Shown: in pieces, positions 12,614 to 64,000 of the stretch
How positions within the stretch are numbered: the first letter of the stretch is position 1
How the letters are laid out: each line of letters starts with the position of its first letter
Assembly: GCA_033439265.1 (NCBI GenBank)
Contig: JAVTVX010000017.1
Coordinates: 5,551,001 to 5,615,000 of the forward strand
Direction of reading: 5' to 3'
Source of the DNA: Dillenia suffruticosa
Lineage: Eukaryota > Streptophyta > Magnoliopsida > Dilleniales > Dilleniaceae
Length of the DNA stretch: 64,000 nucleotides
Made by a program: the position numbers and the translations under genes
The notes under the pieces: generated by a model
The model's input: only the letters and a program-made list of their open reading frames with translations
Told to the model about the DNA's origin: nothing
Databases searched by the model: none

Positions 12614-12825
12614 GTGGAGCAGAGCCGATTCTCCTCTCTCGGCTCCGACTCATTTCTGTATGGGACTGCGTTTCTCACCATGTTACTCGCCTCCCTATGG
12701 AAAACCCTCTCTCTCCACGTCGAGCAGAGCCGGTTCTCCTCTCTTGGCTCTGACTCATTTCTGACTTTGGGATTTCGTTTCTTACCATATTATTCACCTC
12801 CTTATGAAACCCTCTCTTTCCGCCA
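12614..12825 (+). repeat. Imperfect tandem duplication spanning the aminotransferase start
   Basis: Two adjacent units of about 105-107 bases, 12614-12718 and 12719-12825, are clearly homologous: both contain GAGCAGAGCCG, TTCTCCTCTC, GACTCATTTCTG and an ATG followed by a CCCTCTCT(C/T)TCC stretch. The ATG of unit 2 (12804) is the proposed start codon. The equivalent ATG of unit 1 (12697) opens an 18-codon upstream ORF ending at 12753. Confidence 0.8.
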
Positions 12826-13900
12826 AAATGCGACTTTCGATTTTGTCATTATCTCCGGTGGAACCCATTTCCCATGGAATGCTAATACCTTGGAGTCTCA
12901 ACCCTACGTCACTACTCTCCATTTCCAGAACCTCATTCGGCAGACGAGGTTGTAGTATTAAAAATAGCAACTCCTTATACCCTTCTGTCATGGCGAGGGT
13001 TTCGACTATTTCCACGGAAAAAGGGGCTGTTTCGGATGGTACAGAGCAATCCCAAGTGACCCAGCAACCCTTGCCGGTAAATAAGCGGAACCCTTTTTTT
13101 GTTGAGCTAATTAGATTTTGTGGAGATTGTGGTTATGGTTTGTTTCGGAAATGGGGTTCTAGGTTTTTTGAATTGTGGATTTTCTTGATTCTAATTATCT
13201 TTAAGTTTATATCTGGAGAAAATTCCATGGTGGGTGGGTTGAGTTTTGATTGGCTTAATCTACTTTGATGCTTGATCTAATCTTGTAGCTGTGATGTGCT
13301 TGTTTGGTTGGAATTCATGATTTCTGCGAATTTAATATTGGGAGTATGTAAAATTAGCCTAGCATTTACCAAAGACCGAGGATATTTATTGAATTGAATG
13401 TGCTACTTCAAAGCTGTCCGCGCGCAAGATATAAGAGTTCTTCTGCTGTTGGCCTTATAGTGTATGACGAAAAAACTTGGTTTTGTTTCTAAAAGGAGAA
13501 AAAAAAATGGTTCATATGCAAATCTATTTGATCTTTGGTATGTTAATGCTGTCTGCTAGGTGCAGTAACCTTTAATATGCCTTCAAGACAAGTCATTCAT
13601 CATGGTGGCGATAAAAGTTTATTGGTCCAATTAGAAGCGCTCATGGATCTAGGCTATAGTCTTTCATTAAATATTAAATGCTTCTTTATGGTTGGTGGAT
13701 GGAAATTTAAGCTATCCAAGAGGCATTATTTCAGAAAAAAATGGAGTATGGTACTTGCTACTGACCTACTGAAGCTTCATCCCATGCCAATCATAGCTAT
13801 CAAACTAAAAGTCTGTAGGAGGAAGCAGTTTGTAGTTTCTGAACTGGCCCTCTCCTGAATTGTCCTGGTAGTTCAATGCTACAGGGAGGCATATTTTGTA

Positions 13901-13965
<65 letters not shown>

Positions 13966-16491
13966 GCTTGTCTTTGCCTGGATTTTTTGTCGTCAGCAAT
14001 TTTTGGGACATCCTAATTGTTTGCCATGTAACATTAGCTTTTCTGGGAACTTCCCTTTAACGTGTTGATTTCTCTGGCTGCTTATACTGTAAATATTGTT
14101 TCGTCAAATGGACCAACAGGGAGAAAATCTGAACCGGGACATTTAACATTTCTAGGATCCCTTCTCCTTTACTGTGACCAATAGGTAAAAGGTCTAATTT
14201 TTGCTGCCAGGTTTATGTCATAGGTTATCATATGGCATACAAAGGTTTAGCTATTATAAGAATGTGATTTAAGGAATATTTGGATAATGTTTTCCCCTAT
14301 TAGTTTAGAACAAACCATCATTTCTTCAATACCTCAAAGGAGCCTTAGATGCTGTGAAGTAAATGCATATTTCTAGCCATTGCCATCGGTTGGAATTTGC
14401 TTCATATTTTCTACCCATTAACTATATTGCTCAATCCAAAGTATGCTAGTGGAAAAATAACACATTAAATCAGTAGCTTCTCTCTTGTATAATCCGCAGG
14501 GAAAGAAATTGTGTTCTTGTTGCAAATGGATATTATGTATATTTCTGAGGAGATTAGGTGATTATAATTCCTCATACCCAGCTCAATTATGCTTTTGGTT
14601 AATTAAGATTGAGCAGTGAGGGAATATCTATATATGTTAAAATTAGTTGTTTATAGGCCTTCATCCTCTCTATTGCTGGTGTTCTCACGCCCTTAGTTTC
14701 CCTGTTCGAAGTCTTTTTACAACAGATAATCATCAGCCACTTTGAAATCCACAATTCTTCTACTTTTTGCATGAAACTTCAATGAGTTTGATATACAAAG
14801 GCGAGAGCAGATAAACACCGCCAAAAGATACTTCTGTGAAACTGGTTATTTCTGTGGACCAGTCTCTCAATTCATTAGCCCATGTTCAGTATGTTATTTT
14901 GCTGCCTGAGCTTGGACATGGAAACACACAAGAGTTGACTTAAACCTTGCAACTGGCCGTCATATGGCATGGCATTTTTTTTTTTGTTCATAGTCACTTT
15001 ACACTTAAATACTTGGATAGGCTCAATCAGACTTGATTTGAAGATTGGGCATGGTTTATTGGAATGAGCTTGTTTTGATTTCTATGTGAGTGCTGTCAAA
15101 TATGGTTGTCTTTGGCTGTATGAATTTTTATTTTCCGATTGTGTAGGTAGAACTAGACAATTTTTTATCAGTCCTATATTTTGATTGTATAAGACAAGAT
15201 TGGGACATCGTTTGACTTATAGGTCAGAATCAAGTATGTAGTCAGATCCTACATGGGATGTATCTGTGGTTATTGTGTCTTTCATTAAATTAAGTTGCAT
15301 TTTGTACTAAATGTTGCATACAACTATGTTCTATTGTGTCAGGTTGCTAAGCGGTTGGAGAAATTCAAGACTACAATCTTCACACAAATGAGTTCACTTG
15401 CCATTAAATATGGGGCTATAAACCTTGGCCAAGGATTTCCTAACTTTGATGGTCCTGACTTCGTAAAAGAAGCAGCCATTCAAGCCATCAAAGATGGAAA
15501 AAATCAGTATGCCCGTGGATATGGTGTTCCGGATCTCAACTCTGCCGTGGCAGAAAGGTTTAAGATAGACACTGGTCTTGTAGTGGACCCTGAGAAGGAA
15601 GTTACTGTTACCTCAGGTTGTACTGAAGCAATTGCTGCTACCATGTTAGGTCTGATAAACCCTGGTGATGAGGTGATCCTGTTTGCACCTTTTTATGATT
15701 CTTATGAAGCTACTCTCTCCATGGCTGGTGCTAAGATAAAAGCAATCACATTGCGACCTCCTGATTTTTCTGTCCCCATGGGTGAGCTAAGGTCTGCAAT
15801 CTCGAAAAATACCCGAGCGATCCTAATAAATACTCCTCACAACCCTACAGGAAAGATGTTCACTAGGGATGAGCTCGAAGAGATCGCATCTCTCTGCAAA
15901 GAGAATGATGTATTGGTTTTTACTGATGAAGTTTATGACAAGTTGGCTTTTGAAATGGATCACATATCTATGGCTTCTCTTCCCGGCATGTATGAGAGGA
16001 CAGTGACCATGAACTCTTTAGGGAAGACATTTTCTTTAACAGGATGGAAAATTGGTTGGGCAATAGCTCCCCCACACCTAATGTGGGGAGTGCGCCAAGC
16101 ACATTCATTCCTTACTTTTGCCACCTGTACTCCGATGCAGTTTGCAGCTGCAGCAGCACTGCGAGCCCCAGACTCTTACTATGAGGAGCTGAAGAGGGAT
16201 TACATGGAAAAGAAGGCAATTTTGGTGGAGGGACTGAAGGCAGTTGGTTTCAAGGTGTTCCCATCAAGTGGGACTTACTTCGTGGTGGTAGATCACACTC
16301 CATTTGGACAGAAAGATGACGTTGCGTTTTGTGAGTATCTGATCAAGGAAGTTGGGGTTGTAGCAATCCCGACAAGCGTCTTTTACTTGAACCCTGAAGA
16401 TGGAAAAAATCTGGTAAGGTTTACCTTCTGCAAGGATGAAGGCACCCTGAGAGGTGCAGTTCAAAGGATGAAGGAGAAAATGACAAAATGA
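12804..16491 (+). CDS. PLP-dependent class I/II aminotransferase, organellar kynurenine/cysteine-conjugate type
   Basis: Two exons: 12804-13076 and 15343-16491, joined in phase 0 (donor GTAA at 13077, acceptor AG at 15341-15342), giving 473 residues. Exon 1 encodes a Ser/Arg-rich, acid-poor N-terminus typical of an organelle transit peptide; Met63 (12990) begins a stretch resembling the start of shorter relatives, so a second start is possible. Exon 2 encodes the whole fold-type I domain: GQGFPNF, NPTG (residues 258-261), DEVYDKL, the Schiff-base Lys319 in NSLGKTFS, and the carboxylate-binding Arg450. The family (kynurenine/glutamine transaminase-like, Arabidopsis At1g77670) moves amino groups between amino and keto acids; the plant substrate is uncertain. 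The 2.27-kb intron contains a 56-base AT microsatellite. The next gene downstream, the MORN protein, is also its neighbour in Arabidopsis. Confidence 0.92.
13907..13962. repeat. (TA)n microsatellite in aminotransferase intron
   Basis: A 56-base pure TA run within the single intron, about 830 bases after the donor site. Confidence 0.95.
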
Positions 16492-22085: not shown

Positions 22086-22977
22086 ATGAGCCAAACAAAG
22101 CTAACAAGAACGCAGTCTTCACTCCTTAGATCGTCTCCAACAATCCGATCTTCAATACACACCCTTTCATCAGTAGTAATCGCCGAAGACCAACAACAGA
22201 CGACTCAAAATCAAGAACCAGAAGAAGATGAGGAAGAAACCAAGAAAAGGAGAAGGACCCACAAACCCGGTTCGACCATACAAAGAAGCCGGTTCATAAT
22301 CCCAAACTTAGCCATGGCTTCCTTCACTTTCTGCGCACTTTCTTTCGCTTTTTTCTTCTATTATCTTCGAAAAGACGAAATACCCACTTCAGAAAACCTC
22401 CTACTTGCTTTAATTTTCATAGCCATTGCTCTCTTTTTCGCCGGGAAAAACAAGGGCTTTATTATCCAAACCGGTTCAATCCTCAAACACATATGGTCCT
22501 ACCATTCCCGGTTCAAAACAAACGGTAAACCCGTTCAGTGGTTCATTGGGGATAGCGGGTGTTCCTCAAATCCCAAAAAGGACAAAATTGTGAGAGAGGG
22601 TGTTGAATTTTACAGTAATGGTGACTTTTATGAAGGTGAATTTCACAAAGGAAGGTGTAATGGAAGTGGGGTTTACAATTATTTTGCAAATGGGAGATAT
22701 GAAGGAGATTGGATTGATGGGAGGTATGATGGGTATGGAATTGAGAGCTGGGCAAGAGGGAGCCGGTATAGGGGGCAATACAGACAGGGTTTAAGGCATG
22801 GTTTGGGCGTGTACAGGTTTTATACAGGGGATTCTTATGCTGGGGAATGGTGTAATGGGCAGAGTCATGGAATTGGAGTTCAGACTTGCTCTGATGGGAG
22901 TTGTTATGTTGGGGAGTTTAAGTATGGGGTCAAGCATGGCCTTGGTTGCTACCATTTTAGGTGAGTTTAGTTTTCGG

Positions 22978-23028
<51 letters not shown>

Positions 23029-24900
23029 TTACGTTGCTTCCATGTTTAAAGTTTCCTGTGATTCCGCTGTTTTGGGTGTCAGTAATTAGTTTTCTTGTTT
23101 TGAAGTGTTCAGTGATTGATTTAATGGTTGTGATTTTATTGATGAGAATTTTAGGTGAAAGATTGAATTTCTTACATGATGGATTATTTCGTGAGCATGA
23201 TAAATTCAATGCAAGATTGCTATTTGTGCATCATTCATACGAAAAAATATATTTATATGCTCATCTTTGTGGGTTTTTTTGTATTAAATTTCTAGTTTCT
23301 ATGTTGGGGTGTTTTAAGTATGGTCTCGAGCATGGCCTTGGTTTTGGTGAGGTTCTTTATTCTTTGATCGCGGTTTTGCGTTTTTGGATTTTGATTGTGT
23401 TGTGTTTGTGTGATATTGAACTTTCTGGTTTAGGACTGCTTTTTGATTGATTTAACATTTTGAAACTTAATTGATGAGAATTTCGGGTGACAGATTTTGA
23501 TGTTGAGTTCTTTATTGGGCTTCATGATTGTGTTTGAAATGTTAAACTTTTGTGCAAATTGCTAGTTATGGGTCTTTCTCATGAGTAATGAAAGAGTAGA
23601 GTTTTAGGTTTCCTAATTGGTTTCGTGGATTTAAAGGGATAGATCAAAGATATTGCCCATTGCGTGTTGTAACTATAGTTTTTGTGTTTGTGTTTAATTT
23701 TCTTTCCTCTAAAGTCAACGTGGCAAACAATTGGCACTTGATGGATGAATTTTGAGTTTATGATAGTTTATATGGTCTGCTAAATCGTCACAATCATGTT
23801 CCGAAGTCTATACATTTTTGACTTGCAATGTGACAATGTCTGACAATTGTCTATGTTCAATTTTTCAATTACAATTTGCGAGCTGCAGTTTCCTTTGTGA
23901 CTTGGCGACAGAAAGATTGATGTTTGTGAAATTTACAATTCTTGTAGCTTTTGGTGGGATGAGTTGCTTTTCTTATATAAAAGTTTTTGTCAGGGTATAA
24001 TTTTATTGAGAAGAACCGCATCGAAACAGAAGTTTTATGGAGAGCCTGCCTTTTTTACCTTGTTTTGCTGTCTACCGTTTCTGATTTTCTTTTCTGCTGT
24101 ACCGCAGTCTGGGGAAACTAGAGCATCTATAATTGATCTCTTAGCTTTTCTGCTTATTTGACATCTAGTTATTGCATTCCATATTGCATTGGATCTGTTG
24201 AATATTGCTGTCATGCTTTTGTTTCAGCTCAGTGCCTGTATTTTCCGTGTTAATTTTTTTTTTTTCCAGAATATTCTTCAGTTTAAAATGACTGGTGGTG
24301 TGATTGCCCCTAATTGATTACAAGAAATAAACTAACCAGAAGATATGAATTGTTCTTGCAGAAATGGAGACAAATATGCTGGGGAATACTTTGGTGACAA
24401 AATCCATGGATTTGGTGTCTACCACTTTGCCAATGGTCACTGTTACGAAGGGTCATGGCATGAAGGGCGTAAACAAGGATATGGCATGTACACTTTTCGA
24501 AATGTTGAAACTAGATGTGGAGAGTGGGATGGCGGTACCCTTAAGAACCCCCTTCCCCCATTAACGGTTTCAGTCCTTCGAGCAGTTCAGGTATTGATTT
24601 TATCCACTTTTGCACCTTGCAACATATTCTTGACTTCTGGATTCTACATCGTATTTTTAAAACTGTTTTCAATCTAATTATGTTATGAATTTCTGCATTT
24701 GGTTTTAGGCTGCAAGAAAAACTGCAGAAAATGCAATTCACCATCGGAGAGTGGATGACCAAGTAAACAAGGCAGTCATGGCAGCAAATAGAGCAGCGAC
24801 TGCTGCTAGAGTTGCTGCTGTTAAAGCTGTTCAGAACCGAATGGATGGAAAATTTTGTGACGCATATGTCTACGGAGCAACCCCTTTTTCAGTAGTGTAA
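22086..24900 (+). CDS. MORN-repeat protein with N-terminal membrane anchor
   Basis: Three exons: 22086-22960, 24362-24590 and 24709-24900, giving 431 residues with consistent phases (2, then 0) and GT-AG borders. Residues 1-70 are basic and Ser/Glu-rich, probably cytosolic. Two hydrophobic segments (about 75-94 and 104-120) form a hairpin or double-spanning anchor. Residues 181-345 hold seven MORN repeats of about 23 residues (YEGEFHKGRCNGSGVY, YEGDWIDGRYDGYG, YRGQY, YAGEW, YVGEF, YAGEY, YEGSW). The C-terminus is Ala-rich and helical (about 369-412). MORN repeats in plants bind phospholipids and are seen in PIP5 kinases; this shorter kinase-free type (Arabidopsis At1g77660/At1g21920, database-labelled SET7/9-like because of the repeats alone) has no assigned reaction. 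There is no SET domain here. Intron 1 holds a long ATT repeat and a relic copy of the exon 1 end. Confidence 0.9.
22977..23028. repeat. (ATT)n microsatellite beside a splice donor
   Basis: About 17 ATT units start only some 16 bases after the exon 1 donor (GTGAGT at 22961) of the MORN gene. Confidence 0.95.
23300..23343 (+). repeat. Relic copy of MORN exon 1 end inside intron 1
   Basis: This intronic stretch matches exon 1 positions 22905-22948 (TATGTTGGGG, then AAGTATGG, then AGCATGGCCTTGGTT) at roughly nine in ten bases. Weaker homology continues into flanking intron sequence (23139 and 23471 share TTGATGAGAATTT). The copy has a one-base shift relative to the exon and no good donor in the right place, so it is unlikely to be a used exon. 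Confidence 0.65.
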
Positions 24901-33010: not shown

Positions 33011-33895
33011 ATGTCGTTGAGTCCTCCTCGGGTAAGGTCCAATGGCAGCAGAAGATACAATCTCTACTGGTGCCACCATTGCCACCAGACTGTTAGGATA
33101 GCTGCAAACAACCCTTCAGAGCTCATCTGTCCACGTTGTTTTGGCGAGTTTCTATACGAGATCAATGCAACTAGACCAGGACTACGACTAGTCATTCACT
33201 TCACCCAATTTGATCCCTCCCCTGAAGCCCGTATGCTAGAAGCACTCACGCTGATGCTCGACCCACCAGCCGGACTGCGTAATTACAGACTATTAGACAC
33301 AGACGAATGGGAGCCAGAAGCGGGAATTCTAGCGCGTCCTTGGCCTGGGATAATCATGAGAAGATCCGGTCCTGCTAGGCCAATCAGACCCATTTCTCGC
33401 CCAGAGAATCGAGTTCCACCAGCTTTTGATCCACGCAACTACTTTGTTGGTCCAGGGCTGAATGAGCTCATTGAAGAGCTGACCCAAAATGACCGGCCGG
33501 GTCCCCCTCCTGCGCCTCCTTCAGTAATCGATGCAGTGCCAACAGTGAAAATCACGGAAGAGCATTTGTTGAATGATTCACATTGTCCGGTATGTAAAGA
33601 AGAGTTCAAGATTGGTGGGGATGCAAAGGAGTTGCCTTGCAAGCACATATATCATTTGGAGTGCATAGTGCCCTGGTTGCAGCTTCACAATTCTTGTCCA
33701 GTTTGTAGGCTAGAGGTGCCTGTGCCAGCATCTTTGGAATGTAATCACTCAGAAAACAATGAGTCTGATAGTTCTCGCAATGGGCATGAAAGGAACCACC
33801 GACCCTTTAGGTGGGGACACTTGACCTCCATATGGCCATTTTGGTCTAGGTACAGACCTCTAAATTTGGAAAGCGACGCTGCTCGTGGAGGTTAG
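33011..33895 (+). CDS. Zinc-ribbon/RING-H2 E3 ubiquitin ligase
   Basis: Intronless, 294 residues. An N-terminal zinc ribbon (C21-x2-C24 and C40-x2-C43, in YWCHHCHQ and ICPRCFGEF) is followed by a Pro/Arg-rich linker and a RING-H2 domain with all eight ligands: C192, C195, C210, H212, H215, C218, C229, C232 (HCPVCKEEF, LPCKHIYH, WLQLHNSCPVC). The C-terminus is Trp-rich (HLTSIWPFWSRY). This arrangement is that of the RNF126/RING1-like cytosolic E3 ligases, which take ubiquitin from an E2 and pass it to substrates; plant relatives are often stress-induced. The substrate cannot be told. Pro221-Trp222 is present; it sits in the usual E2-contact position. No signal peptide or membrane span. The start is the first Met of the conserved N-terminus. 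Confidence 0.92.
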   Translation: MSLSPPRVRSNGSRRYNLYWCHHCHQTVRIAANNPSELICPRCFGEFLYEINATRPGLRLVIHFTQFDPSPEARMLEALTLMLDPPAGLRNYRLLDTDEWEPEAGILARPWPGIIMRRSGPARPIRPISRPENRVPPAFDPRNYFVGPGLNELIEELTQNDRPGPPPAPPSVIDAVPTVKITEEHLLNDSHCPVCKEEFKIGGDAKELPCKHIYHLECIVPWLQLHNSCPVCRLEVPVPASLECNHSENNESDSSRNGHERNHRPFRWGHLTSIWPFWSRYRPLNLESDAARGG

Positions 33896-35187: not shown

Positions 35188-38100
35188 TCACAAGTGCTTG
35201 GGTTGATAATGGATACCAGCATGAAACCCTTCTGTATAGGCTGTGTTCTTGTAGATCACCTGCAACAAAGAACCCATCGTTGAGCAACAAAAGAAAGAAG
35301 AAACAGTGCAAAACATGTAAAGGGAGAAGAATCTGATAACTGTCATCTGCTTCAGGATTGTCTAGTTGTGTAACACAATTTTGCTTGGTAGCCAAAACCA
35401 AAAGCCACAATGGAAACATAACTTTTGCTTTTAATGTTTCCACCGTATGAGAGCTTTGAAACTTTAACAATAAGTAGTGAAAACTAATGATTAGTAATTG
35501 CTGCTTTAGTGTGTTCTCGTGGTTTTGGCTTATGTAAATGGACAGAGATGTTCTCTGCGTTGTGTATTTGCCATGATCTCTGTGTCATCCCCATCAAGTT
35601 CAATTATAAAAGCCAAAGATGAGTTATCCAAATCAAATCTAGTCCAGTGTTGGTGTGGAAGGACAATAATTACGGTCTTTCATGAAAGCAACAGGGAAAA
35701 AAATGAGATAACTGGTCTCCTTTTAATAGGCATAAACAAATCAGCAAGATCACAGAACTGCTAGTACAATAAATTGTGCTATTTATAGTTCTGGAAAGTA
35801 AGGCACAAACTTTCTGACTTAATTTTTAGGCAGATGCAACATTTTGACCCATCTTTCCTACATGGGATCCCAATAAGAAATTAAGACCTATTTCCACTGA
35901 AACCAGTATACAGTACATCAATCAAAATGACTGTAGAGAGGACATTTTCCTCACCATCACAAATTGGGGAGAAAACAATTTCCTCACTATCAATCATAAG
36001 TGATATGGTTCAATGAAACCAGAATGATCAACTTTGCTATGTCCAGCATAAAAATCAATTTAGGCCCCAATGCACTAGCCATTTACAGCATAAACATTTC
36101 TCAGCCTGTATTCCAACACGAAGTCTCTTATACAAGCAAAATGCTTCTTTCTCCACCTCATAAACCAAATAAATCCAGAAAAATAGAAATTGACATTAAT
36201 ACTCACAGCTAGGTGCTTCAACTCTGAGCCAAGATATTTTCTGATACTATCAGATACAATGAGTCCCAGCTGCTCACCATGCTGATTGATAGTGTCCTTA
36301 GTTATCTGCATGGTGTCATCTCTTTAGTCAAATATTACTACACACCTATGTTGAGGCCAAAACAGAAAAATAATCTCCTTACTTCAGAAAGGACCAGTGT
36401 TGCAGCTTTATCTACAATTTCATCCAAAAGTTGTCCACAAGAAAAAGAGGAGACTGATGGATTCACAGCCTTAGATGGTTTGCCATCAACCTTTTGCGAG
36501 TTACTAGATGTTTTAGCAACTTTTGCTGGACCCAAAAAAACAAAAGGGATAAGGAGGGGCAGGGAAAACACGCAGTCAATCACAAGCACAAGAAGCTTGA
36601 AGAAATTATACACACTTTTCGGAAGTCATCTTGCTACATTCATCATACTAATCAGAAAAATTATTTAAATGGCAAGGCATGCACATTTCCCTTGCAAAAA
36701 GGAAAATATGTGCTCCAGTCAAGTGTTCATTGTGGATTTAATGTGTAGCCGATCATCTATGTGCATGCTCTGCACTCAAAATGGGAGGAAAATTTGGAAA
36801 AGAAGATCCTACTCAGACTAGAATAAACACATTTCTCACGTACAAATCATTATCAAAATTCAATTAACAGAATCGATAGCATCATCCATATGGGTTCATA
36901 GAGGTATCTAGTTCCATTAGTATAGCAAACCCCACCAGTGGAACATATTTCTGCATAGATGACGAGTAATGTGAAACTGTTTCAAATAATTTACCTGTAA
37001 CCAGTGGAGATTTGTTATCCAGAGAAGTGTGATTAGTGGAAGATGGCAAATTCGACAAAGTTGTCTCAGGAGGATCAGGGAGCACTATGGAACCAGATGG
37101 AACAAAAGAAGCTAGATCAGGAGGTTGATCCTTTCCTACTGGAGGGTTAGCCTGCCAAACATCAGGATCATTACAAAATCAGAAATCAATATACAAGGAA
37201 TGATACAAACCCAACCCAGAAAAACGAAAATTAGAGGATATTGAATTGTATATCACCTCCAGATCAACATAAGGGGACTCTTTTCCGATTGATAGCAAAA
37301 ACTTGTCAAGATCCTGAGACTTAAGAGCTGCAACCAGCAAATAAAGTCATTACAAGCGGGTGACAATAAGTTTATAAATCACAAATAACATGTCTTGTTT
37401 TCATGTATGAAAACATATGTTGGCACTTGAACTTTTTACTTTTCCTACACGTTACTCAAACCTTGGATCTAGTTGAGTCTTTATACCTTTTAGCTATTTG
37501 GCCACCAATTGACAGAATTATTGACCCCATTACATGCCATCATGTAACACAGAATACTGACACTCACTTATAAGATACTACAGAGTATATTTTCAGTGTG
37601 ATGTTTAACCCAGAAATCAGTGACACACACCCAACTAAAAATAAAAGAAAGCCACACATAATAAGAAATCAAGGATGGAAGAGTTGCTCTGATGTTTAAT
37701 TCAGGAGACAGAGTAGGAGAATGCACCAAGATTGATCTCATTAATTCTCCTCCCCCTCTGCCCTCATTGTCATTTCCCATTTAAAATTTTGCTCTCTTCA
37801 CTTTCTCTCCCAATTTACTTCTGCAGCCAACAATTGGAGAACTATAGGGCTTGAAGACTAAAGCGCTTTTTTTTTTTTTTGTTATAAATTTTCATCCAGA
37901 AGAAAATTCTTATTTTAACAAATTATTCAAACCTGTAGAAATCACCTTGAGAAAATCAAATCCAGAAAGTCTCACCACCATTCTCTTTCTAGTAAAGAGC
38001 TGGCCAACCTCACTGTTTGACTATGCCATCGTCCACTGATTGTGGATTTGATTTATTTTTTCCGTCAAGAGTTTATTGCGAGTACTCTTTTTGGCTAAAA

Positions 38101-41100: not shown

Positions 41101-42936
41101 GAAAAGCCACCTAAAACTTGAGCAAAAAATGGCACTGAATGATCATGTAACATGGTATATTCATTTTCACATCTCTGTTTCAATTATTATTGCCAGCTAA
41201 TGTGAAGTTTAAGATTGTGCTTCACCTCACAGTATGAAACTTCGTTTTTATTCTCAAAGCAAGGCATCATTTATAAGAAAATGATATTCAACTAACTTAC
41301 ATGGTACTGAGAAGGGCAAACAGATTACAAACTTAGAACGTAAAAGTCAAAGGACATAAGGAGACCGCAATCAGGTGACAATTGAAGCTTTGTGATTGTA
41401 AAGAAAATTGCTCTTGAAGCTTACCGAGCTGATTCATTAATTACTGCAAATGGTGTAACACAGCCGAGTGGCACCTGAAACATCGTTAGAGAACAACTAT
41501 ATCAGACAAGAAATTAAAAGACATACCTGTCTGCTTCTAATCATATCCGTTTCAAGCTTTAAGAGCCACTAGATGATCACATGTTGACAAGGCATAAAGA
41601 TCAGGGAAACCAACAAAAAAAAACCATGACCTTTAAAACCGAGATGGTAAGACTTTAGAGTTTTCTATTTCTTTCATGACAATCAATTTTCAAACTTTGG
41701 CCCTGGTAGTCTCTCAGCATGAAAACTGTACTTTCGTACATAGAGTGGACAAAATTCAAGGTGAATTATGCAGGATATCCCTATCCGGATGATCAGGGGA
41801 GAGTATAGAATATCTCTCCAGATAATCATGCTGAGTATAGTAAGCTTGGCACCTATTAAAAAGTTAAACTGCTCAAACACATTGAGTCACAGCAAAACCA
41901 TCAAGCTGAATAAAAGCTCGAATGTTCTACAGTCTCAACTATGGGTGTTAAAACACTCGATTTGAGTTAGGTAGTATCAATACCTGAGCTCAGCTCGAGT
42001 GTTGATTAGGTGAGCTCGAGCTCATCGAGCTTGCATTTCTCAAGCTTGAACTCGGCTCAAAGTGCCATCGAATAGTGTCATTGGATAGCGTCACGGGTAG
42101 TGTCATGAGCTCGATTAAATTACATTCTCCTTTAATTAATTGATTTCAGGTAATATATTCAAAGAATATACCTATAAACATAATTTCACATATAAAAATT
42201 ATTTTAAAAAAAATATAATTAATCGGTCTCGAGTAACTCTACAAGCCTTCAAGCTCGACACATTTGGGCTTGAGCTCGATCTCAATGCTGAGCTACCCGA
42301 GCTCAAGCTCGTGCTAGGTTTGACCAAGCTCGAGTCGAGTTTTGACTGGATAGTGTCATAGGTACCCGTGACACTAACCGAGTCTCATAACACCCCTAGT
42401 CTCAACCAACTAATTAATAGGTCAGGACAGAAATAGTACAATTTCTGCACAATACACAGGAAAAAGAGGAGGAAACCAAGAGGGGAAAGTGATTTGAGTA
42501 TAACAACCTGAAGTGTTTCCTGCAGTGTCTCTTCAGGAGCCATCCTTAGACCTCCTTTTCCCAAACCAAGCCTTGTGGATAGAACTAACCATCATAGACA
42601 TGTTACAAAATTTCAGTAAGCATTTGAATGCTAAAAGGAAAATAAAAGACGAAAAGAGAAATTCTTATAGAATTTGTAATTGTGGTGAGATGGCAAAATT
42701 TCCATATAGCATGTGAAAATAGGAGGCAACAAGAAAAAAGATAGAAAAAATTTATGCACCTTTCAAATCTACTCTAGTATTGGCCAGGGCAGAAATAATA
42801 TAAAGCCTGTTTTTCTTGTCCTGCATGAATCAGTAATGTAAATTCAAGGTCATAAATACAGATAGAAGATATCATTCTTTATATGTTAGCACGGCCATGA
42901 GTAAAAATGGAGGCATATCTAACTTGATCACCAAAA

Positions 42937-42976
<40 letters not shown>

Positions 42977-43884
42977 AGAAAGGTTAATACTTTCCAACAA
43001 ATTACCTTCAAGAACAAATTCTTGCTCAATGCACCTCCTAAATGCCCAACATATTTTGCCTGTTTAAAAACAAGAATGTTGCTTAACAGAACAAATTAAA
43101 ATAAAGAAAAATCTAGTCCTTACTTGTTCTAATAGTTTTAGGTTTACCTGAGCATCGACTGTCATCACAACGGGGTGCTCATATGTAACAAAGGGAATTT
43201 GAAGCTCCTAAGAGTAATCGGATACATGAATCAGTCCCATGAAAAACTAACAAAGAACTTCAAAATCAGAAACATTCTTACTTGCATCAACATATCTAAA
43301 TTTAAAAATTACACCACAGACAAACGCATAGAACTGAATTACTTGGAAATCAATCACACTATTCACTAGTACGAGACCACTAGAAGAGAAAGAGACCAAA
43401 AAATGCAGGTGGGTTAGTCTCATCTTATCCATCTTGCTATACAGGTGAGAAGCCACGAATCATACAAATTATAAAAACGATATAATAGGGAGATAGTAGG
43501 GAAAGAGTCAAAAATCACGCATGGGCTATGCGTTACATGTGGAAATTGTATAAAACGGGCGGCTACCAATCATCAGCTACTCATAAAAAAATTGTAATAA
43601 AATTTAAAGATAAAATATGAACAAAAAATTCCATGAATCAAGCCTAACCCTATTGTCTACACATAACCTAAACTGCCACCAAATGATCAATGGCAGTCGA
43701 TTTTAAATTCGAGTAAAGAAATCCCGCATCGCAAATTGGAATCAGTAGATAGAAAGAAGCCAAGAAGACCGATTTGCAGCAAAGAAAGAGATGATAACAA
43801 AGAAAACTAGGAGAGAGAGAGAGAGAGAGCAAGTGAATAGTATACCTTTAGACGGGCAAGCAACTGCTCCTTCGAAAAACCCAT
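35188..43884 (-). CDS. YbaK/ProX-type aminoacyl-tRNA deacylase-like protein (PRORSD1 type)
   Basis: Twelve minus-strand exons: 43846-43884, 43148-43207, 43006-43059, 42760-42820, 42508-42584, 41425-41474, 39568-39650, 37257-37327, 36995-37151, 36383-36525, 36207-36305, 35188-35259. All borders are GT-AG, the phases agree, and the total is 966 bases (321 residues plus stop). Residues 1 to about 170 form the YbaK/ProX fold (MGFSKEQLLARLKELQ, EHPVVMTVDAQ, GALSKNLFLKDKK, LGLGKGGLRMAPEE, LGCVTPFAV, FHPLSNDMT, VDLEANPPVGKD). Bacterial relatives clear mischarged Ala-tRNA(Pro) or Cys-tRNA(Pro) in trans; the conserved Lys of the YbaK family fits the KNLFLKD block. A low-complexity linker and a helical C-terminus follow, ending in YKNTAYTEGFHAG. 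The closest relative known to me is Arabidopsis At1g44835. Activity on plant tRNA is inferred from the family. Confidence 0.9.
39765..39946. repeat. Perfect 91-base tandem duplication in an intron
   Basis: 39765-39855 and 39856-39946 are identical (both GTTGGGAGAAACCTCTCAGG to TAAAAGTATCTCA), lying in intron 6 of the trans-editing gene, about 115 bases upstream of exon 7 in transcript sense. Identity implies a recent event or an assembly artefact. Confidence 0.95.
41940..42398. mobile_element. Non-autonomous hAT-like MITE in intron 5
   Basis: A 459-base element with terminal inverted repeats (5' TATGGGTGTTA, and the reverse complement of the 3' end TAGGGGTGTTA) flanked by GTCTCAAC at 41932-41939 and 42399-42406, an 8-base duplication typical of hAT. 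The interior has no transposase but is full of GAGCTCGAGCTC-like runs that form subterminal inverted repeats. It lies in the intron between exons 5 and 6 of the trans-editing gene. Confidence 0.8.
42943..42971. repeat. (AG)n microsatellite in intron
   Basis: About 14 AG units in intron 3 of the trans-editing gene. A shorter run (43811-43829) lies close to the exon 1 donor. Confidence 0.9.
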
Positions 43885-53743: not shown

Positions 53744-56700
53744 CTAATAAGAACCATCCTCAAAGGAACTCAAAGAGCTGATTATTGATTCGTACACCTT
53801 GATTCCATTCAAATAGATAGTAGCCTTCAGGAACTGCAGTGAAAGAATATCCATAAGGCCATTGATAAAAAATTCTCAAAAGTTTTATAAAAGAAAAACA
53901 TTATATATCTATAAATTGGTGATATTTTCATGATTTCCATACCTCATTATGGTCATGGAGTAAGATAGGAGTATTCTTAATTGGAGAGAAACCAAAAGCA
54001 GGAATACCCTTCTGTCTCACATATCTAGCATCAGTTGTTGAAGCCAAGATTTCAGGCTTTGATAGTTTTCCTCCAGCTGCTGTGATAGCTTGCTTGAAAA
54101 TAGACCACCATGGATTTGAATCATCTGTAGCAGTTGCCAGAGGGTGCCCCTTGTGGTCTGTCATTGGCCCTTTCTCGATTATCTGTGACATTCAAGAAAT
54201 GATCAGCCTCTTCCAGGTTAAGCTTTGGGAGGCTCAGAGTACATTGAAGGAACACAATTCAAATTCAGAATTTCGCTTTCAAGGATAGAGAATTTATGTC
54301 TGATGAGTTCCTATCACATAGAGGGAGTTTAGCTGCTTTCCAACATGTAAGAAGTACAAATCTCTTTAAAGCTTACAGATGCTTCTTTAAAAAATAAAAT
54401 AAAATAAAAGAAGGCCTTTAAGGCCTTAAAAATGATGACAAGCGACAGAAGATGCATCAGTTCAAAGAAGAGGCCCAATCACCAACAGTGTGGTGAGTCC
54501 CTAATCAACAAAGCAAAACTAACAGTTGAGCCCCATTTAGCCAGCCAATCAGCATCAGCATACCCTTCTGGGAAGATATGAAATATAAACAATCAACCAA
54601 TTCCAATCACAAGGCAGAAGTGCTTTACAACCATCAATCACTGCAGCAAGAAGATGACTATCAGCATTGCTGCTGAAAATTAAATTCTCTGGAACTTGAG
54701 AATCCAATTCCACCACAAGATAGCAGCCAGAGAGATTTCACCTTAACATCAAACCCTTTCAAACAGTCCATCACTCAGCAAACAGATTTTACCTCACACC
54801 TTGTATCATTCTTTTAGCCCAGCCAGCATAAAGCATTTTTATACAAAGAGATTACATCAAGGAATATAATTCTTCATCCAAAAAAAAAAACGTGTATATT
54901 TATTTACATGAGCATTAGGTAACCAACCATGGGAAGCACACACAGAGAGATAACTCTGTTCTTGCGTTCCTATTGTTTCTATTAGAAAAGTTGAGGTGAA
55001 GAGGAAAAGGCACATATAAAGATAAATTTGGAAAGAAAGGTAAAGACTATAGGAGAAGACCATCAAGCAGCCAGTTATTGTAAAAGAAAATGGCATGCAA
55101 AATACTAGCTAAATAACACAGCAATGCCTAAAAGGACAAACCAGACTCCTGAAAAGGAGGGATTGCATGAAATTTCCTTTATCAACAAAGCCAGCAAAGT
55201 CATTATGCATATCAGCAATAATTAAGTTCAAATTTTCTTTGCAGGTCCTACATGGGAAACAAAGAGTCTTGAGCTTACAGAATATCATTTTTCATCATAC
55301 TGATAAACAAAAAAGCTCCATCCGCTGAAAACCTAAGGAAACTATTGCTATATAATAATGCACTTAAAGTTCCAGGAACCAATGAAGACATATTATTCCA
55401 TACAACAAGACAACTAAACGCATCAAATTTAACACAAAAAATGACAATTCATGAGATTAACATTTACTCACAAGGACGGAAGCACATAAGTTAGAATAGA
55501 ATAAAGAACCACATTCAGAGTCATTTTAAGATAATATCACCATAAGAAAACCTAGGTCCATGTGAATCGAAAGCCAGTCAGACAAGGAGAAAAAAAAAGG
55601 GTGAAGGATTAATTAACAAGCTGTACAAAGGTTCAACATGTGTATATAAAAATCAACTGAAAACATTATTTTGGTCTTTTGATCAGCAATACGACATCTT
55701 ATTTATACTGCCTAAGAAATACCAATCAACTATCTTTAGAAAAATGAGACTCTACTGTTCCAGCCGCGCATAATGCTCATGGACCAGCAGTTCAATCACT
55801 TTCTTCACTCATTGTAACCCTAGTTAGTTATCCTCACAGGTGTAAATGAGGCAATAAACCAATCACCCCTGTCCCAATTGAGGTGAACTTTTAACTTGTC
55901 TATTAATTCCCAAACGCAAGTGCAGATAAGTCTGCTTGGACAGGCCAGGAAGCAGACCACTACTGCACAAGAGCCCCTTACAACAAACAACAGAAAAAGG
56001 ATCAAGAAACAAGCACAGGCTTATCTAGTGAACAAGCTTAGTCAATCCCAAAACCATAATTGCAGCTCACTCAACATTCTTTCTTCAATTGAATAAAGCA
56101 CAGGGAAAAACAAAACTTACCATCTCTTCGCAAGTCACAACCTCCTAAAAACTGGCATAACTCCCAATTTTTCAATCTTAACAATCTGAATCATTGAATC
56201 TTAGACTTATATAGAAGGCATGTCAATAAAACTTCAATCATTGAAGTCAAACCTCGTTGACTACAAATAGTTTGGAAGTCATGCTAATGTGGTGCTAACT
56301 TGACACTAATCTCACATTAAGGTGGCTAGTCAAACCCCCTCCATTAAAAAAAAGAAAATGTTTGGAAGTGACTCCAACATGATGATTAATTAAGTTTTTT
56401 TACCCCAAAATTAGGATTTTACCTGTGCTCCATCCTTAAACAATGAGAATGGGAGGCCAGTATTTCCATGTGATACAAGGGAGACAGGCAGTCATTGTTT
56501 CCTTACCTCCCTCAAGTCATTTCCAAACCCATTTGTTGTTGCTTCTTCTTCTTCTTCTTCTTTTTATATATATATATATATAAAGGATGGAGCTGGTCAT
56601 GGCTATATACAAGAGAACAATAAGCATGCCACCAATACTGGTCACATTAAGTATGGGAGGATAGTCTAACCAGCCTGCCACATATCAAATCAGTACCGCC

Positions 56701-58424
56701 ATGCGTTTTGCTATGAATACATTCACAAATTAAAAACAATAATAATAATAATAAAGTATCATCTAATCAAAAAGAGGCCAGAGGTCATACTCATATAACT
56801 TGAAACTTAAATTAACTGAAACCATTACAAGCTCCAATTAACAGTTAGATAACTTATGTTTTCCCGAGACTCTGATATTTGCCCTTTCATCTGTTTATGG
56901 GCAATCAAATCAAACAAAGCCAGTTATTTGAATCTCATCTACGGATGTTACTAGAGCCAGTTAATAATCAGCTCGACTCTACCCCATTGGTGGCAAGTAT
57001 ATGTAGATGACAAATGAGGAAAGGGGCAAATATGGAGGAAGTCTGTCCTGCCCCTTTTACAGTCCCCAATAAATTTTGCATTTGAAGACTTTGGTACATA
57101 ATATATTTTCTCATACATCCTATTATATAAGCTATTTTGCATGTCATAGAATCTACGTACTCTTTTTTTTTGGGGGGGGGGGATGAAGAGCGTGGGCATA
57201 TGAAGAAAAATTTTCTTGTGCAGTCGGGGTATGAGAAGCAAATAGCCCCTTACATTGCCTTGTCAACACCCTACTTATCATTGAATGTGCGTCATATTAA
57301 AAAAATGTATTCCAGAATTGAACAGTTTTCACCTGATAGGTCAAGTTCCTGGCAGCTGGTGCCCACTCATCAACAATTCTTTTCTTCAGAAGATCCGAGT
57401 CAGCAGTAGGAGGGAGGCGAATATCAAAACCGGCTTCAGCCTCCGAGGGTTGCATATTCATCACAAAACCCTACATAACACTCTTCATTCCTATCAATAT
57501 TAACAACAAAAGACTAACTTAAACCATAACAAAATAGTAAAACAATCCAATGATTGAAGTCAAGAAACTCACAGTTGGCGAAGGAATCCCGGCTTTGAGA
57601 TACACCAGATTCACCGATATAACTTCACTAATCATAGCATTTCCAGCCTTAACAACATCAAAATGACTCTCCCTGAACTTAGTAATAACCTCAACACTTT
57701 TCATCAAATTCTCCATGGCACTATTATCAAACATCTTCGAACCATGTCCAGGCGTCCCACTAGCCCTAATAATTAAATTCCACGGAGTCCGGTCCGCATA
57801 AAAAACCCTAAAAACATCTTTAGTTGAAGCCTGACCTTCATCCAGCACAAACCCAACATTCAAATTCTCAAACTCCTTAGAAGCAGTAAACTTAGCAGCC
57901 CCATCAAACCCACCAATCTCCTCGTCCGGAACATACGACACATGTATTGTCCTAGCCGGAACAAACCCTTTACTCCGAAGATTCTTTAAAGCCTCCAAAT
58001 ACTGCATTCCTATGCATTTGTCATCCTGCGCACCTCTGGCGAAGATTTCACCGTCCAAGGTTTTGTGGGCGGCGAAAGGAGGGTGAACCCACTTGGAGGG
58101 CTCGGCAGGGACGCTATCGAGATGGGAATTGAGGAGGATTGAGGAGAGAGATGGATTTGAGCCAAGAAGAGTAAGCAGAAGGACTGGTTTGTTTGGGGTG
58201 AATTCTAGAGTTTGGGTTTGGAGACCTGGAATGGATTGGGCAAAGGCTTTGAGAAAGGAAATGGGCGCGGTGTAATTGGGGTTTGGATGAGCCGTGTTGA
58301 ATCTGAGGTATTGCTGGAAGCGAGAGATAGGTGAATCTTCTTCTTCTGGGTGATACGGGGATGTGAGAGAGAGGAGAGAGAGCAGGAGAGTGAGCAGGAA
58401 ATAGGAGGGATAGTGTTTGAACAT
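53744..58424 (-). CDS. Aminoacylase-1-like M20 metallopeptidase
   Basis: Four minus-strand exons: 57573-58424, 57333-57470, 53943-54182 and 53744-53833. All join in phase 0 with GT-AG borders, giving 439 residues, the usual length for plant aminoacylase-1. An N-terminal hydrophobic segment (about 7-22) suggests a secretory signal. The di-zinc site is complete in sequence: NSHLDS (H101, with D103), GAQDDK (D134), PDEEIGG (E168 catalytic base, E169), LDEG (E196), and C-terminal HDHNE (406-410). TPGHGS (H227) is the dimer-contributed active-site His. The C-terminal exon carries the end of the catalytic domain. The family hydrolyses N-acyl-L-amino acids to amino acid plus carboxylate. The likely orthologue is Arabidopsis At1g44820, which sits next to ERF014 there as here. 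Intron 2 (3.15 kb) contains an RNase H-like fragment. Confidence 0.93.
54481..54740 (-). repeat. LINE-type RNase H (RVT_3) domain fragment
   Basis: On the minus strand, intron 2 of the aminoacylase gene encodes an RNase H-like stretch: VVELDS (first catalytic acids), then LLAAVIDGCKALL and DWNW, then in a shifted frame HIFPEGYADADWLAKWG, equivalent to the family's H-REAN-ADWLA block. This is the C-terminal domain found in plant non-LTR elements. No reverse transcriptase, poly(A) or target duplication was recognised, so it is an old fragment with a frameshift. Confidence 0.55.
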
Positions 58425-58683: not shown

Positions 58684-59029
58684 GGGTACATTTAGTAGTA
58701 AAAAATGAGAATGTTTTTCAAAAAATAATTTCTAAAAAAATGAAATTATATTTAAATATTTCACTTTTTAATTTTTTAAAAATAAAAATTAAAAAACATG
58801 ATTAAAAGAAATAGAAAACAACTTTAAAATTGTTTTCTATTATTTTTCATTATAATTAATACCTGTATTTTTTAAATTTTTTTAATTTTATTAGAGAAAA
58901 TTAGAAATAGAAAAGTATGTATCTTTTGAATATATTTTTAAATCTTCTACTCTTTTCTTTAAAAATAGAACATATAAAAAAAATTAGAAATAATAAATTA
59001 GAAAACATTTTTTATAACAAAACGCACTC
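58684..59029. mobile_element. Tourist/PIF-Harbinger-like MITE
   Basis: A 346-base AT-rich segment with terminal inverted repeats, GGGTACATTTAGTAGTAAAA at the left and (reverse complement of the right end) GAGTGCGTTTTGTTATAAAA, agreeing at about 15 of 21 positions, flanked by TAA (58681-58683 and 59030-59032). TAA/TTA duplication and short G-rich ends are typical of Tourist elements. There is no transposase. The divergence of the ends suggests age. Confidence 0.6.
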
Positions 59030-60389: not shown

Positions 60390-60442
60390 CTGATAACAAC
60401 AGATACTATATCTGATCTTAGTTGAAAGGTTGAGAAAGGTAC
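60390..60442 (-). pseudogene. U2 snRNA pseudogene, 5' fragment
   Basis: On the minus strand, TACCTTTCTC, ACTAAGATC, ATAGTATCTGTT and TTATCAG appear in the order and spacing of the first 53 bases of U2 snRNA, about 43 of 53 identical by eye. The branch-point recognition GTAGTA is changed to ATAGTA, four G bases of stem I are changed to A, and nothing of stems II-IV follows. It is therefore a truncated, decayed copy and not a working snRNA. Confidence 0.75.
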
Positions 60443-61019
60443 AAAAACACTTCGGCTCATTATCAAAATTTGGGTTAATGTTTCTTATGAGCGGATCGAT
60501 TGCATGAGTTTATAGACCCGATTGACTTTTATTATAGAAGTTTAAGAGATTATTTGAAAGCGTATAAAATTTATGAAATTGTGCTTCAAGTGATGCAAAA
60601 CATGTTACAATTTGAATCGACACATGCGACATAAAAATCATAAAATTTTCATCTAACAACGAAAGTTCTAAATTTCTAAATTTATAATAAAAGAAAAAGA
60701 AATCAACAAATAAAGTTAATCAGTAACCATTGGTGCAATGCTAAAAAATTTTTCAGAACCATATAATAAAGGAATCATCACATTCACAGAACAAACACAT
60801 AAAACTATATTTACGTATTTGTAGACATAGATGTCTCCCATATATATATACGCCCACAAACACACACACAGGCGCGCGTGTATATAACAGCTTTGGTCAT
60901 TATTATGGTTTCTAATCATGAGAGAACCCTAGACACTTAGAAATGGGCTCAATGCTAGGATAAATCAGATTCGCTCTATATTTGGCAATATTTTGATTGA
61001 AAATGAATAGGGACATATG

Positions 61020-61053
<34 letters not shown>

Positions 61054-62111
61054 AATTTATTCGATTTAAAAAAAAAAAAAGTAAATACAGCTAACAAGCT
61101 TTGCTAGGCTAGCATCCATATTCAATTTAACCATTTGGGGCATTGCTTTTGCACTGACCGAACATGCCGCTCCTCTACAGCATCTGTCTGGAAGATGGTA
61201 ACTTGAATTTATCAAATATAACTCAGGACTCCCTCAAACTATACATTATTTCTCATAAACCAGATTTGATAGCTGATAAGAGCAAAGGATACTAAGTTTT
61301 TACTACTCATTATATAATATGGACTTTCACAATAAATCTTTATTTTTTTGTGGTATATATTTTTTTTAAAATTTTTAAAAGACTAAGTTTCTCAAACTAT
61401 ACATTTTTTTTCCTAATTTTTTTTAAAAGACTTTCTATTAAAAATGAAAAAGATATTACCAAACAAATGCAATATTACTACATTTATTTATTTTTCCAAT
61501 AAAAACGGAGATACACTAAGCGTTTACTAAGTTGTCTCTTACTATAAAATGTTAATTTGTACATAAATTAATGATTTAAATTGAATTTATTTCGGTATTT
61601 AAATATTTATTGACTGCTTATACATAATTTCTTAGTTAAAATGATAAAAATTTTTTATTCAAAAAATTCTAGTTTAACGTGAAAACTAGTATATAAAAAA
61701 ATAAAACCTTTTACTTTAACCACTAATTATTATATTTAAAATAAGAAAAATTAATTTATAAATACTTTTATGAAGGGGATAAAAACGCTGCCGTATTTTG
61801 TTTACATGGGAAGTGATTGAATCGGTGAACCCCTCCAAAAATGGTAAAACGGGGTGGAACGGAAAGTATCAAGACGAGCGCGGACAAAGCACGCAGAAAT
61901 TGATTGCCGTCTCATAACGTGGGCGGTATCTATTGGACCAAGAATATCAAACCTGCGTGGCGCTCAACTACTCTGCATTCTTTCCAACGCAGTACCCATC
62001 CACGCGCCGTAGTCTTCCATTTTCCCCCTTCGGTCAAGAGAGTCCGTGTGTCTTCCCGTCTGATTTCCCCTTCTCTCGCGAACTCAAAGACTAGAGGGGA
62101 GAGAGAGAGAG

Positions 62112-64000
62112 ATGAAGAAAGTCGGATTACGGGCTTGGGCGGTGTTGGTAGTGATATGCTGGGCACAGAAGAGCGAAGGAATCTGGTTAGACGTTCCGAG
62201 TACAGGAACCAAGTGCGTGTCGGAGGAAATCCAGAATAACGTCGTTGTTTTAGGCGATTATGTTGTTGTTCCTATGGAGGATCATGCCAAACATGACGCC
62301 TCCATCTCCGTCAGAGTAATCATACATACTCTTCTTTCCGTTTCTTTATTGATTTTTCGAGTTTCTTTTGATTTTCTTTTTATAAACAAATTTGATTCTC
62401 TGATCACTCTGTTGGATTCCTATTCTTTCCTTTCTCAATTTTAAGATTAGAGTTTATCTGTGTGAAATGGGAAAATGTCTTTTTTTTTTTCCCTAATTGA
62501 AGGCTAATGCTACATTTTATTGCCTGCTAGCGTTGATCGTGAACAATTGCATTGCGGTAGACAAGTTTAAGTATGGTGGCTGTTTTTTTTTTCTTTTCTT
62601 TTTTTTTGGGTGACATGAATAAGCAAATTTAAAATTGAATTTGTTAGAAGCCTAGGTCTTTATGTTGAGAGAAAGTGGTGAAATTGCGGTATATATTTGA
62701 AGGAGTGGAATTGGGGGCGGTCAATGTTCTTTTGATTATGCCTAGTACTGTTAAATAAAATGGGAATTTTGGGGGATGCAAATGCCATATCATGGAATTC
62801 TAGAAAGCATAAAGAATGCGGTATAGGGCTTTACCTTTAAGTGAACATTTAAGACTGGATGGTGTTCCTGTGCTTAAGTAGTCATTGGAAGTGCAGCTTT
62901 CATTAGGGCTTCAAATAAATCAGGCCTTCTGTGAATAGCTCTGTCATTTGACTTGCTTACTGCTAGGTGGAACCCGTTAATTACTTAAATAAGTTCAGCA
63001 GAAACATGGTTTGTATGTTTGTCTTTTTAACAAGTTGGCCTAAAGCGATCGGCTCCTTTAAGTTCCAGTTTCGCTTGGCTCCTTCAACTAATAAATGAAC
63101 CAACAAGGAACACGGTTTTTTGCTCTATTTTGATACCAAAATATATATATATATATATATTTCATATTGCCTCCCTCCACTAGCTGGAATGATAGTGATA
63201 CATAATATAAGAGGCTTATTCATCAATGTGTCCTCGGTTAGCTGAAGCTAGTGTGCTGCCTTACCTCTGAATTTGATATTGTTGAAATGTGGAGTCCATG
63301 ATGACATAGCCTTGAAGTGTTAATTCTCGTGACAACTGTATGAGCATCCTCTCTATAAGTTCTTACTAACCACATTAAATTAACTTATAGTAATGATGGA
63401 TTCTGCCTGCTGGTCTCATTTGAGATGTTCTTAGCAATATTATGGTGTTCATGTGGATTAATTGTATGTTCTTTTTTTAGGCTTGTAAGATTGATTGTTT
63501 AGATGTTAGTGCAGAATATTTTGATACTGGCTTGAGGTTTTCCTCCCAGCAAGCCCACAGAGTTAAAAATATTCAACTTTCATCCATATAATTCGCAAAC
63601 CTTGTATAAATTGTTTTCTCCATTAAATTGTCCTGATCCTCCCCCCCCCCCCCAAAAAAAACCCCTCCAAGCACACACTCAAATAGTGATTTCAAGTGCA
63701 GCAAGAAATGTCCCTTCTTTTGTTTCACTAGCTGCATGAACGTTGAAAAAATCTGACTAAAATTATTTCAACTAACAATATACTATATGTCAACAATTTC
63801 TTTGCACGTGTGTGTCATTGGCATGAGTGTGCTTGCATATGGATATTTAGGTGACTTCTCCCTTTGGGAACAATCTTCATCACAAAGAGAATGCTACCGT
63901 TGGTCAGTTTGCATTTACAACCACTGAGGCAGGAAACTACTTGGCTTGTTTTTGGTTGGACAGTCATCATCAAGGATCCACTGGGATATCTGTTAATCTT
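62112..64000 (+). CDS. p24-delta cargo receptor (transmembrane emp24 domain protein), 3' end outside window
   Basis: Two exons visible: 62112-62315 and 63851 onward, phase 0, giving the first 118 residues. The start encodes a cleavable signal peptide ([19 protein letters not shown], cleavage near SEG-IWL). The GOLD domain follows: [60 protein letters not shown]. Cys35 and Cys101 are the pair that forms the GOLD disulfide. The p24 proteins cycle between ER and Golgi in COPI/COPII vesicles, sorting GPI-anchored proteins and K/HDEL receptors. The coiled coil, membrane span and KKXX-type tail lie beyond 64000. The sequence favours the plant delta-1 class (At1g21900-like); At1g21900 is also close to a MORN and an ERF gene. 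Confidence 0.93.
63141..63162. repeat. (AT)n microsatellite in p24 intron 1
   Basis: About 11 AT units within the first intron. Confidence 0.85.

What the first reader, a model, noticed from the sequence alone, without database searches (positions are those of the whole stretch)
12804..64000. Window looks like an unfractionated ancestor of three Arabidopsis chromosome 1 segments
Seven genes here (aminotransferase, MORN, RING, YbaK protein, ERF014, aminoacylase, p24-delta) sit in one run. From memory, Arabidopsis has aminotransferase+MORN at At1g77660-77670, p24+ERF+MORN at At1g21900-21920, and aminoacylase+ERF014+YbaK at At1g44820-44835. Complementary gene loss after whole-genome duplication would explain all three from this order.
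Basis: partly seen in the sequence, partly recalled or inferred. Interest (0 to 1): 0.7.

Follow-up and report, generated by a model that had tools for sequence, protein, structure and literature searches.

The report
Plant gene run behind scattered Arabidopsis segments
The seven-gene run is real and fits the ordinary picture in which Arabidopsis, after extra genome doublings, kept different members of one old gene row in different places, while this plant still has the row together on two sister chromosomes; it is a neat but expected case.

Summary
Aminotransferase (GTK type), MORN, RING, YbaK, ERF014-like AP2, M20 aminoacylase and p24 lie in this order, each with its Pfam domain. The window is C17:5551001-5615000 of a 596 Mb plant genome. 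A colinear sister copy lies on C20 (Ks 0.07-0.26 in 8 exons). In the exons tested, six of the seven genes are open there; the C20 aminoacylase is a broken remnant, so fractionation has begun here too. GTK, YbaK, ERF014-type and NSP2-type GRAS genes were found only on C17 and C20. Locus numbers give the predicted order. A fourth run, At4g08250-08310, is suggested by the window's NSP2 gene and by UMAMIT genes beyond its end. Not tested: no Arabidopsis sequence was on hand, so orthology rests on labels and order. 'Ancestor' and 'unfractionated' are too strong for a living, recently doubled genome. The pattern is textbook; interest is low.

The parts
7577..9109 (+). GRAS transcription factor, NSP2 type (outside the finding's range, probably part of the same row)
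   Evidence: Single open frame; Pfam GRAS 350.5 bits; N-terminal [15 protein letters not shown] resembles the OG-NSP2-1 motif DDFHDLIESMMCD printed in PMC5332381, whose Arabidopsis member is At4g08250; C17 and C20 (91%), next match 40%
12990..16491 (+). Aminotransferase, glutamine transaminase/kynurenine aminotransferase type (main exon 15343-16491; a first exon from 12990 is inferred, without Pfam support)
   Evidence: Pfam Aminotran_1_2 237.2 bits; PDB kynurenine/glutamine transaminases at about 1e-75, best hits two bacterial aminotransferases; C17 and C20 (96%), 9 further matches at 25-46% over parts
22086..24566 (+). MORN-repeat protein, two exons read; a further exon at about 24.7-24.9 kb is likely
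   Evidence: Pfam MORN on two exons; twin on C20 (96%), four further matches at 59-77% and five at 33-43%
33011..33895 (+). RING-H2 protein with zinc-ribbon
   Evidence: Pfam zf-RING_2 and Zn_ribbon_19; twin on C20 (83%), the other 36 matches at 33-60%, mostly over the RING part (130 of 313 candidates scored)
36380..43207 (-). YbaK/ProXp-ala-like protein, at least 7 exon pieces; both ends of the gene not modelled
   Evidence: Exon frames; Pfam tRNA_edit just above cut-off on joined exon pieces; all 12 genome matches lie on C17 or C20
47262..47906 (-). ERF014-like AP2/ERF transcription factor
   Evidence: Pfam AP2 48.1 bits; C17 and C20 (92%), all other listed matches 58% or less (150 of 223 candidates scored)
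53931..58424 (-). M20 aminoacylase (start = first ATG of the frame; a further 3' exon is likely)
   Evidence: Pfam Peptidase_M20 74.4 bits, M20_dimer 19.9 bits just under its cut-off of 21; C20 copy broken and partly deleted
62112..64000 (+). p24 (EMP24/GP25L) protein, cut by the window end; stop at about 64709
   Evidence: Pfam EMP24_GP25L 177.5 bits on 4 joined exons; twin on C20, another pair on C21/C8 at 57-63% in the main exon

Best explanation
The window is an ordinary chromosome segment of a living eudicot with a recent whole-genome duplication. It keeps a gene row that the common ancestor with Arabidopsis most likely had after the gamma triplication: NSP2 - GTK - MORN - RING - YbaK - ERF - aminoacylase - p24 - (DC1) - UMAMIT, UMAMIT - CHZ. 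In the Arabidopsis line the segment was doubled twice (beta, then alpha) and the copies lost different subsets of genes, leaving short runs near At1g21890-21920, At1g44820-44835, At1g77640-77670 and At4g08250-08310. The same process has started in the source genome: of the two sister copies, C20 no longer has an open aminoacylase. Shown here: the row, the sister copy, the broken aminoacylase, the single-place status of several genes. Inferred: orthology to Arabidopsis, and that alpha and beta caused the scatter.
For: Gene identities and order. C20 copy colinear across the window and its flanks, with gaps, HSPs at 66-92% DNA identity; Ks 0.07-0.26 in 8 of 10 exon queries, the other two being aminoacylase exons, one out of frame and one without a hit. 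C20 aminoacylase: internal stops and frame changes in exon 1, a stop in the next exon, most of a later exon not found. GTK, ERF014-type AP2, NSP2-type GRAS and YbaK were found at this one place plus its sister, so this genome offers no other candidate for those Arabidopsis loci among the matches scored. Papers label most Arabidopsis loci as required; UMAMIT19 = At1g21890 is the locus number next to p24 At1g21900, as UMAMIT-type genes follow p24 here. Monte Carlo with assumed family sizes: three or more clusters of three or more of these families within 5 loci in 0 of 20000 random placements; within 15 loci in 1 of 5000.
Against: No Arabidopsis, grape or other plant sequence was compared. MORN has four more copies (59-77%) and p24 another pair (57-63%) in this genome, so those two genes of the At1g21 run could be orthologous to other places; aminoacylase too has another pair. 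That ERF012/ERF013 are of the ERF014 subtype is recalled only, and I first recalled the opposite. The RING gene has no assigned Arabidopsis place. At1g44800 as UMAMIT18 and At1g44780 and At4g08310 as CHZ genes are recalled. Arabidopsis strands, and absence of the other genes from each run, were not checked.
Confidence: 0.8

Rival explanations
1. The Arabidopsis runs descend from different gamma copies: At1g44820-835 is orthologous to the window, while At1g21900-920 and At1g77640-670 are orthologous to another gamma segment, so the complementary loss is partly much older.
For: MORN, p24 and aminoacylase have other copies in this genome: MORN on C19, C30, C2 and C5, p24 on C21 and C8, aminoacylase on C21 and C8.
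Against: GTK, which anchors the At1g77 run, and the ERF014-type gene were found only on C17/C20. The other copies are not close together: p24 at C21:0.83 Mb and C8:11.46 Mb against aminoacylase at C21:4.16 Mb and C8:0.12 Mb, MORN on other contigs.
Confidence: 0.13
2. Chance: common families that happen to be near each other, fitted from memory.
For: AP2/ERF, RING and UMAMIT are large families; 150 AP2 matches were scored in this genome alone.
Against: Genes found at a single place here (GTK, YbaK) anchor two of the runs; three clusters within 5 loci were not seen in 20000 random placements (family sizes assumed); papers confirm most labels.
Confidence: 0.03
3. Functional clustering (a selected neighbourhood or biosynthetic cluster) keeps the row together.
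For: None seen, and not searched for in expression data. The row is kept on both sister chromosomes, but so are introns and spacers, as expected of a young duplication.
Against: Unrelated functions by family: amino acid metabolism, tRNA editing, secretory transport, transcription. By label Arabidopsis has split the row.
Confidence: 0.03

Closest known systems
Arabidopsis alpha/beta duplicated segments and their fractionation against less duplicated eudicots such as grape (established; recalled. Seen here: abstract and section list of PMC9194900, passages of PMC6204039)
   Same: One row in one genome matches several partial rows in Arabidopsis
   Different: The comparison genome here has its own recent doubling, and the relation was tested by labels and locus order, not by sequence
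Homoeologous segments of a recent plant whole-genome duplication
   Same: Colinearity of C17 and C20 with low Ks
   Different: Nothing essential; the aminoacylase loss is a typical single-gene loss

Membership tests
Segment pair from a recent whole-genome duplication (C17/C20) | Long colinear gene order with aligned introns and spacers | tested here: met
   colinear HSPs from window -20 kb to +98.9 kb, with unaligned gaps and a few stray repeat HSPs
Segment pair from a recent whole-genome duplication (C17/C20) | Low Ks over the genes | tested here: met
   0.07-0.26 in 8 exons; the broken aminoacylase exon, 0.55, is out of frame and not meaningful
Segment pair from a recent whole-genome duplication (C17/C20) | Other loci on the same two contigs also pair | tested here: met
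   further AP2, RING and GRAS matches on C17 and C20 at about 1.4, 4, 7, 20 and 24 Mb; pairing judged by position and score, not by alignment
   labels in paper passages
Fractionated Arabidopsis counterpart of the row | MORN genes at At1g21920 and At1g77660 | tested here: inconclusive
   papers print 'H3K4 methyltransferase'; the link of that label to MORN is recalled
Fractionated Arabidopsis counterpart of the row | Same relative order | tested here: met
   AGI locus numbers (numbering along the chromosome is recalled convention) give ACY-ERF-YbaK, p24-ERF-MORN and ERF-MORN-GTK, the window order reversed
Fractionated Arabidopsis counterpart of the row | Sequence best hits and gene trees show orthology | not testable with these tools
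   no plant genome other than the source was on hand
Fractionated Arabidopsis counterpart of the row | Complementary retention across segments | not tested
   absence of the other genes from each run was not checked against the Arabidopsis annotation
'Unfractionated ancestor' | No gene loss in the source genome's copies | tested here: not met
   C20 aminoacylase broken and partly deleted

The most novel reading that the evidence does not exclude
The window and its C20 sister display the post-gamma row behind a complete alpha/beta quartet in Arabidopsis (At1g21, At1g44, At1g77, At4g08), and the source genome repeats the same kind of loss now: among the seven genes, in the exons tested, the aminoacylase is the first to go, a gene that I saw named in only one of the Arabidopsis runs.
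Probability: 0.6. Interest if true: 0.28.

Novelty: new member of a known kind. Interest (0 to 1): 0.2.

Why it matters
It is a compact teaching case: one row of about ten genes would explain four scattered Arabidopsis runs, and the source genome shows one gene of that row being lost after its own doubling. It would help transfer gene names and orthology (ERF012-014, p24delta5, UMAMIT17-20, NSP2) between Arabidopsis and other eudicots. It does not change the understanding of genome duplication.

Tried and rejected
Considered and rejected: that the KGVRKRKWGK-type ERF genes at C13:6328111 and C35:19661827 are the relatives of At1g21910, which would have placed the At1g21 run on another segment. 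The idea came from a recalled sequence that I later judged to belong to another ERF (ORA47/ERF018); neither recall was checked against a database. A stop codon at the start of the sixth YbaK exon piece on C20 lies directly before an AG that fits the splice acceptor, so I do not count it as a break; this is a reading of the sequence, not a transcript. Rfam and tRNA scans of the window found nothing. Seven of the other open frames in the window gave no Pfam family at E 0.01. A paper search for two or more of six of the loci together found none; two searches on fractionation and complementary loss with strict terms found none, a looser one listed 15 of 45 papers. No paper held two or more of At4g08250, At4g08310, At1g44780, At1g44800, At4g08300 and At4g08290 with a CHZ label (four papers, none with At4g08310 or At1g44780). 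PMC4986339 and PMC3845248 were opened for ERF subtypes and did not help. Identity of the species was not pursued. The UMAMIT genome-wide search did not complete.

Full report
What is there. The window is C17:5551001-5615000 of a 596 Mb, 37-contig genome, not named. Reading frames, a frame-conserving comparison with the sister copy and Pfam give, in order: GRAS (+, 7.6-9.1 kb), aminotransferase (+, to 16.5 kb), MORN (+, 22.1-24.6 kb), RING with zinc-ribbon (+, 33.0-33.9 kb), YbaK/tRNA_edit (-, about 36.4-43.2 kb), AP2/ERF (-, 47.3-47.9 kb), M20 aminoacylase (-, about 53.9-58.4 kb) and p24 (+, from 62.1 kb, ending about 0.7 kb beyond the window). The aminotransferase matches solved bacterial aminotransferases best and kynurenine/glutamine transaminases next. 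The YbaK call rests on joined exon pieces that pass the Pfam cut-off by 1.5 bits, with no single stretch passing on its own, plus a recognisable exon series. Exons were read by eye from frames; no transcript was available.

The row is longer than reported. Before it lies a GRAS gene whose N-terminus resembles the motif printed for orthogroup NSP2-1, which contains Arabidopsis At4g08250 (passages of PMC5332381). Beyond the window, at window coordinates of about 66-98 kb, lie a DC1-like fragment (Pfam C1_2 at 17.5 bits, below its cut-off of 26), two UMAMIT-like genes in tandem (the second matches Pfam EamA above its cut-off, the first did not) and a CHZ-domain gene on the minus strand.

A sister copy. 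C20:6157990-6275699 aligns with C17 from -20 kb to +98.9 kb, and again at +113 kb, in the same order and orientation, introns and spacers included, with HSPs at 66-92% identity and unaligned gaps between. Ks is 0.07-0.26 for eight exons of GRAS, aminotransferase, MORN (two), RING, ERF and p24 (two). The seven YbaK exon pieces and the last two p24 exons are present on C20. Other AP2, RING and GRAS loci also appear to pair between C17 and C20, and other contigs likewise. This is the mark of a recent whole-genome duplication. One gene is lost: in the C20 aminoacylase, exon 1 is split over frames and holds stops, the next exon carries a stop, and of a later exon only 19 of 87 residues find a match. 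The C17 frames are open. So in the exons tested one of the seven genes is already single-copy.

Copy number in the genome. Each search lists only scored candidates above an E-value limit. GTK: C17 and C20, nine other matches at 25-46% over parts (62 of 62 candidates scored). ERF014-type: C17 and C20 at 100 and 92%, other listed matches 58% or less (150 of 223 scored). NSP2-type GRAS: C17 and C20 at 100 and 91%, next 40% (84 of 106 scored). YbaK: 12 of 12 matches on C17 or C20. RING: C17 and C20 at 100 and 83%, 36 others at 33-60% (130 of 313 scored). MORN: four more at 59-77%, on C19, C30, C2 and C5, and five at 33-43%. p24: C21 and C8 at 57-63% in the main exon, three at 48-51%, and C26 and C24 at 31-35%. 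Aminoacylase: C21 and C8 at 57-63%. Older sister segments, for example from gamma, seem to have lost most of this row or to hold it dispersed, so the window is not unfractionated in any absolute sense; flanks of those other copies were not read.

Arabidopsis. At1g77670 is GTK (PMC9806585). At1g44835 is ProXp-ala, with a plant C-terminal domain (PMC9425024). At1g44820 is a putative aminoacylase (PMC9366325). At1g21900 is p24delta5 (PMC10036638). At1g21920 and At1g77660 are called H3K4 methyltransferases (PMC4763085 and PMC6784238), which I know from recall to be the label of MORN-repeat proteins. At1g21910, At1g44830 and At1g77640 are AP2/ERF genes (PMC5318435 and PMC3485569). With AGI numbers as order, the runs are p24-ERF-MORN, aminoacylase-ERF-YbaK and ERF-MORN-aminotransferase, each the window order reversed; the ERF of the last run, At1g77640, is my addition. 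UMAMIT19 is At1g21890, next to p24 by number; UMAMIT20 and 17 are At4g08290 and At4g08300 (PMC10607921; 'nodulin MtN21 family' in PMC3519560), near NSP2 At4g08250. This suggests a fourth run at At4g08250-08310. At1g44800 as UMAMIT18 and the CHZ genes At1g44780 and At4g08310 are recalled. A random-placement control with assumed family sizes gave no trial of 20000 with three or more clusters within 5 loci; 299 had one and 2 had two. With a 15-locus span, of 5000 trials 706 had one, 63 two and 1 three.

Reading. Two rounds of doubling in the Arabidopsis line (beta, alpha; established, recalled) predict up to four Arabidopsis segments per segment of a genome without them, and four are suggested by label. 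GTK, YbaK, ERF014-type and NSP2 genes found at a single place argue that the runs descend from this segment and not from gamma sisters; MORN, p24 and aminoacylase leave that open. The words ancestor and unfractionated should be replaced by: living segment that has kept the row, itself recently doubled, with one loss already visible on the sister.

Limits. Labels are not best hits, strands in Arabidopsis were not checked, the absence of each gene from each Arabidopsis run was not checked, and the RING gene has no assigned partner.

Noticed in passing
window 12570-12821: A direct repeat of about 105-110 bases just upstream of the aminotransferase start: 12606-12715 and 12709-12821 align crosswise with C20:6184801-6185020, so it is present on both sister copies.
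   Followed up: no
G000:C20:6228650-6230400: Broken, partly deleted aminoacylase on the sister chromosome, while the C17 frames are open.
   Followed up: yes
C17 at window -15925 to -15694 (fetched locus L022): Short conserved minus-strand frame (VILCSALGTWVFSVLGALVAIPVGIRRKSLAPLVFFGTTGTMIDIIMG...), conserved on C20, with no Pfam family at E 0.01; possibly another member of the row.
   Followed up: partly
G000 contigs: Many contigs seem to fall into sister pairs by matching hits (C17/C20, C13/C35, C2/C5, C19/C30, C8/C21, C9/C15, C16/C34), as expected of a genome-wide recent doubling.
   Followed up: partly
C17 at window about +98.9 to +113.4 kb: About 14 kb on C17 without a counterpart on C20, the largest break seen in the stretch compared.
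   Followed up: no
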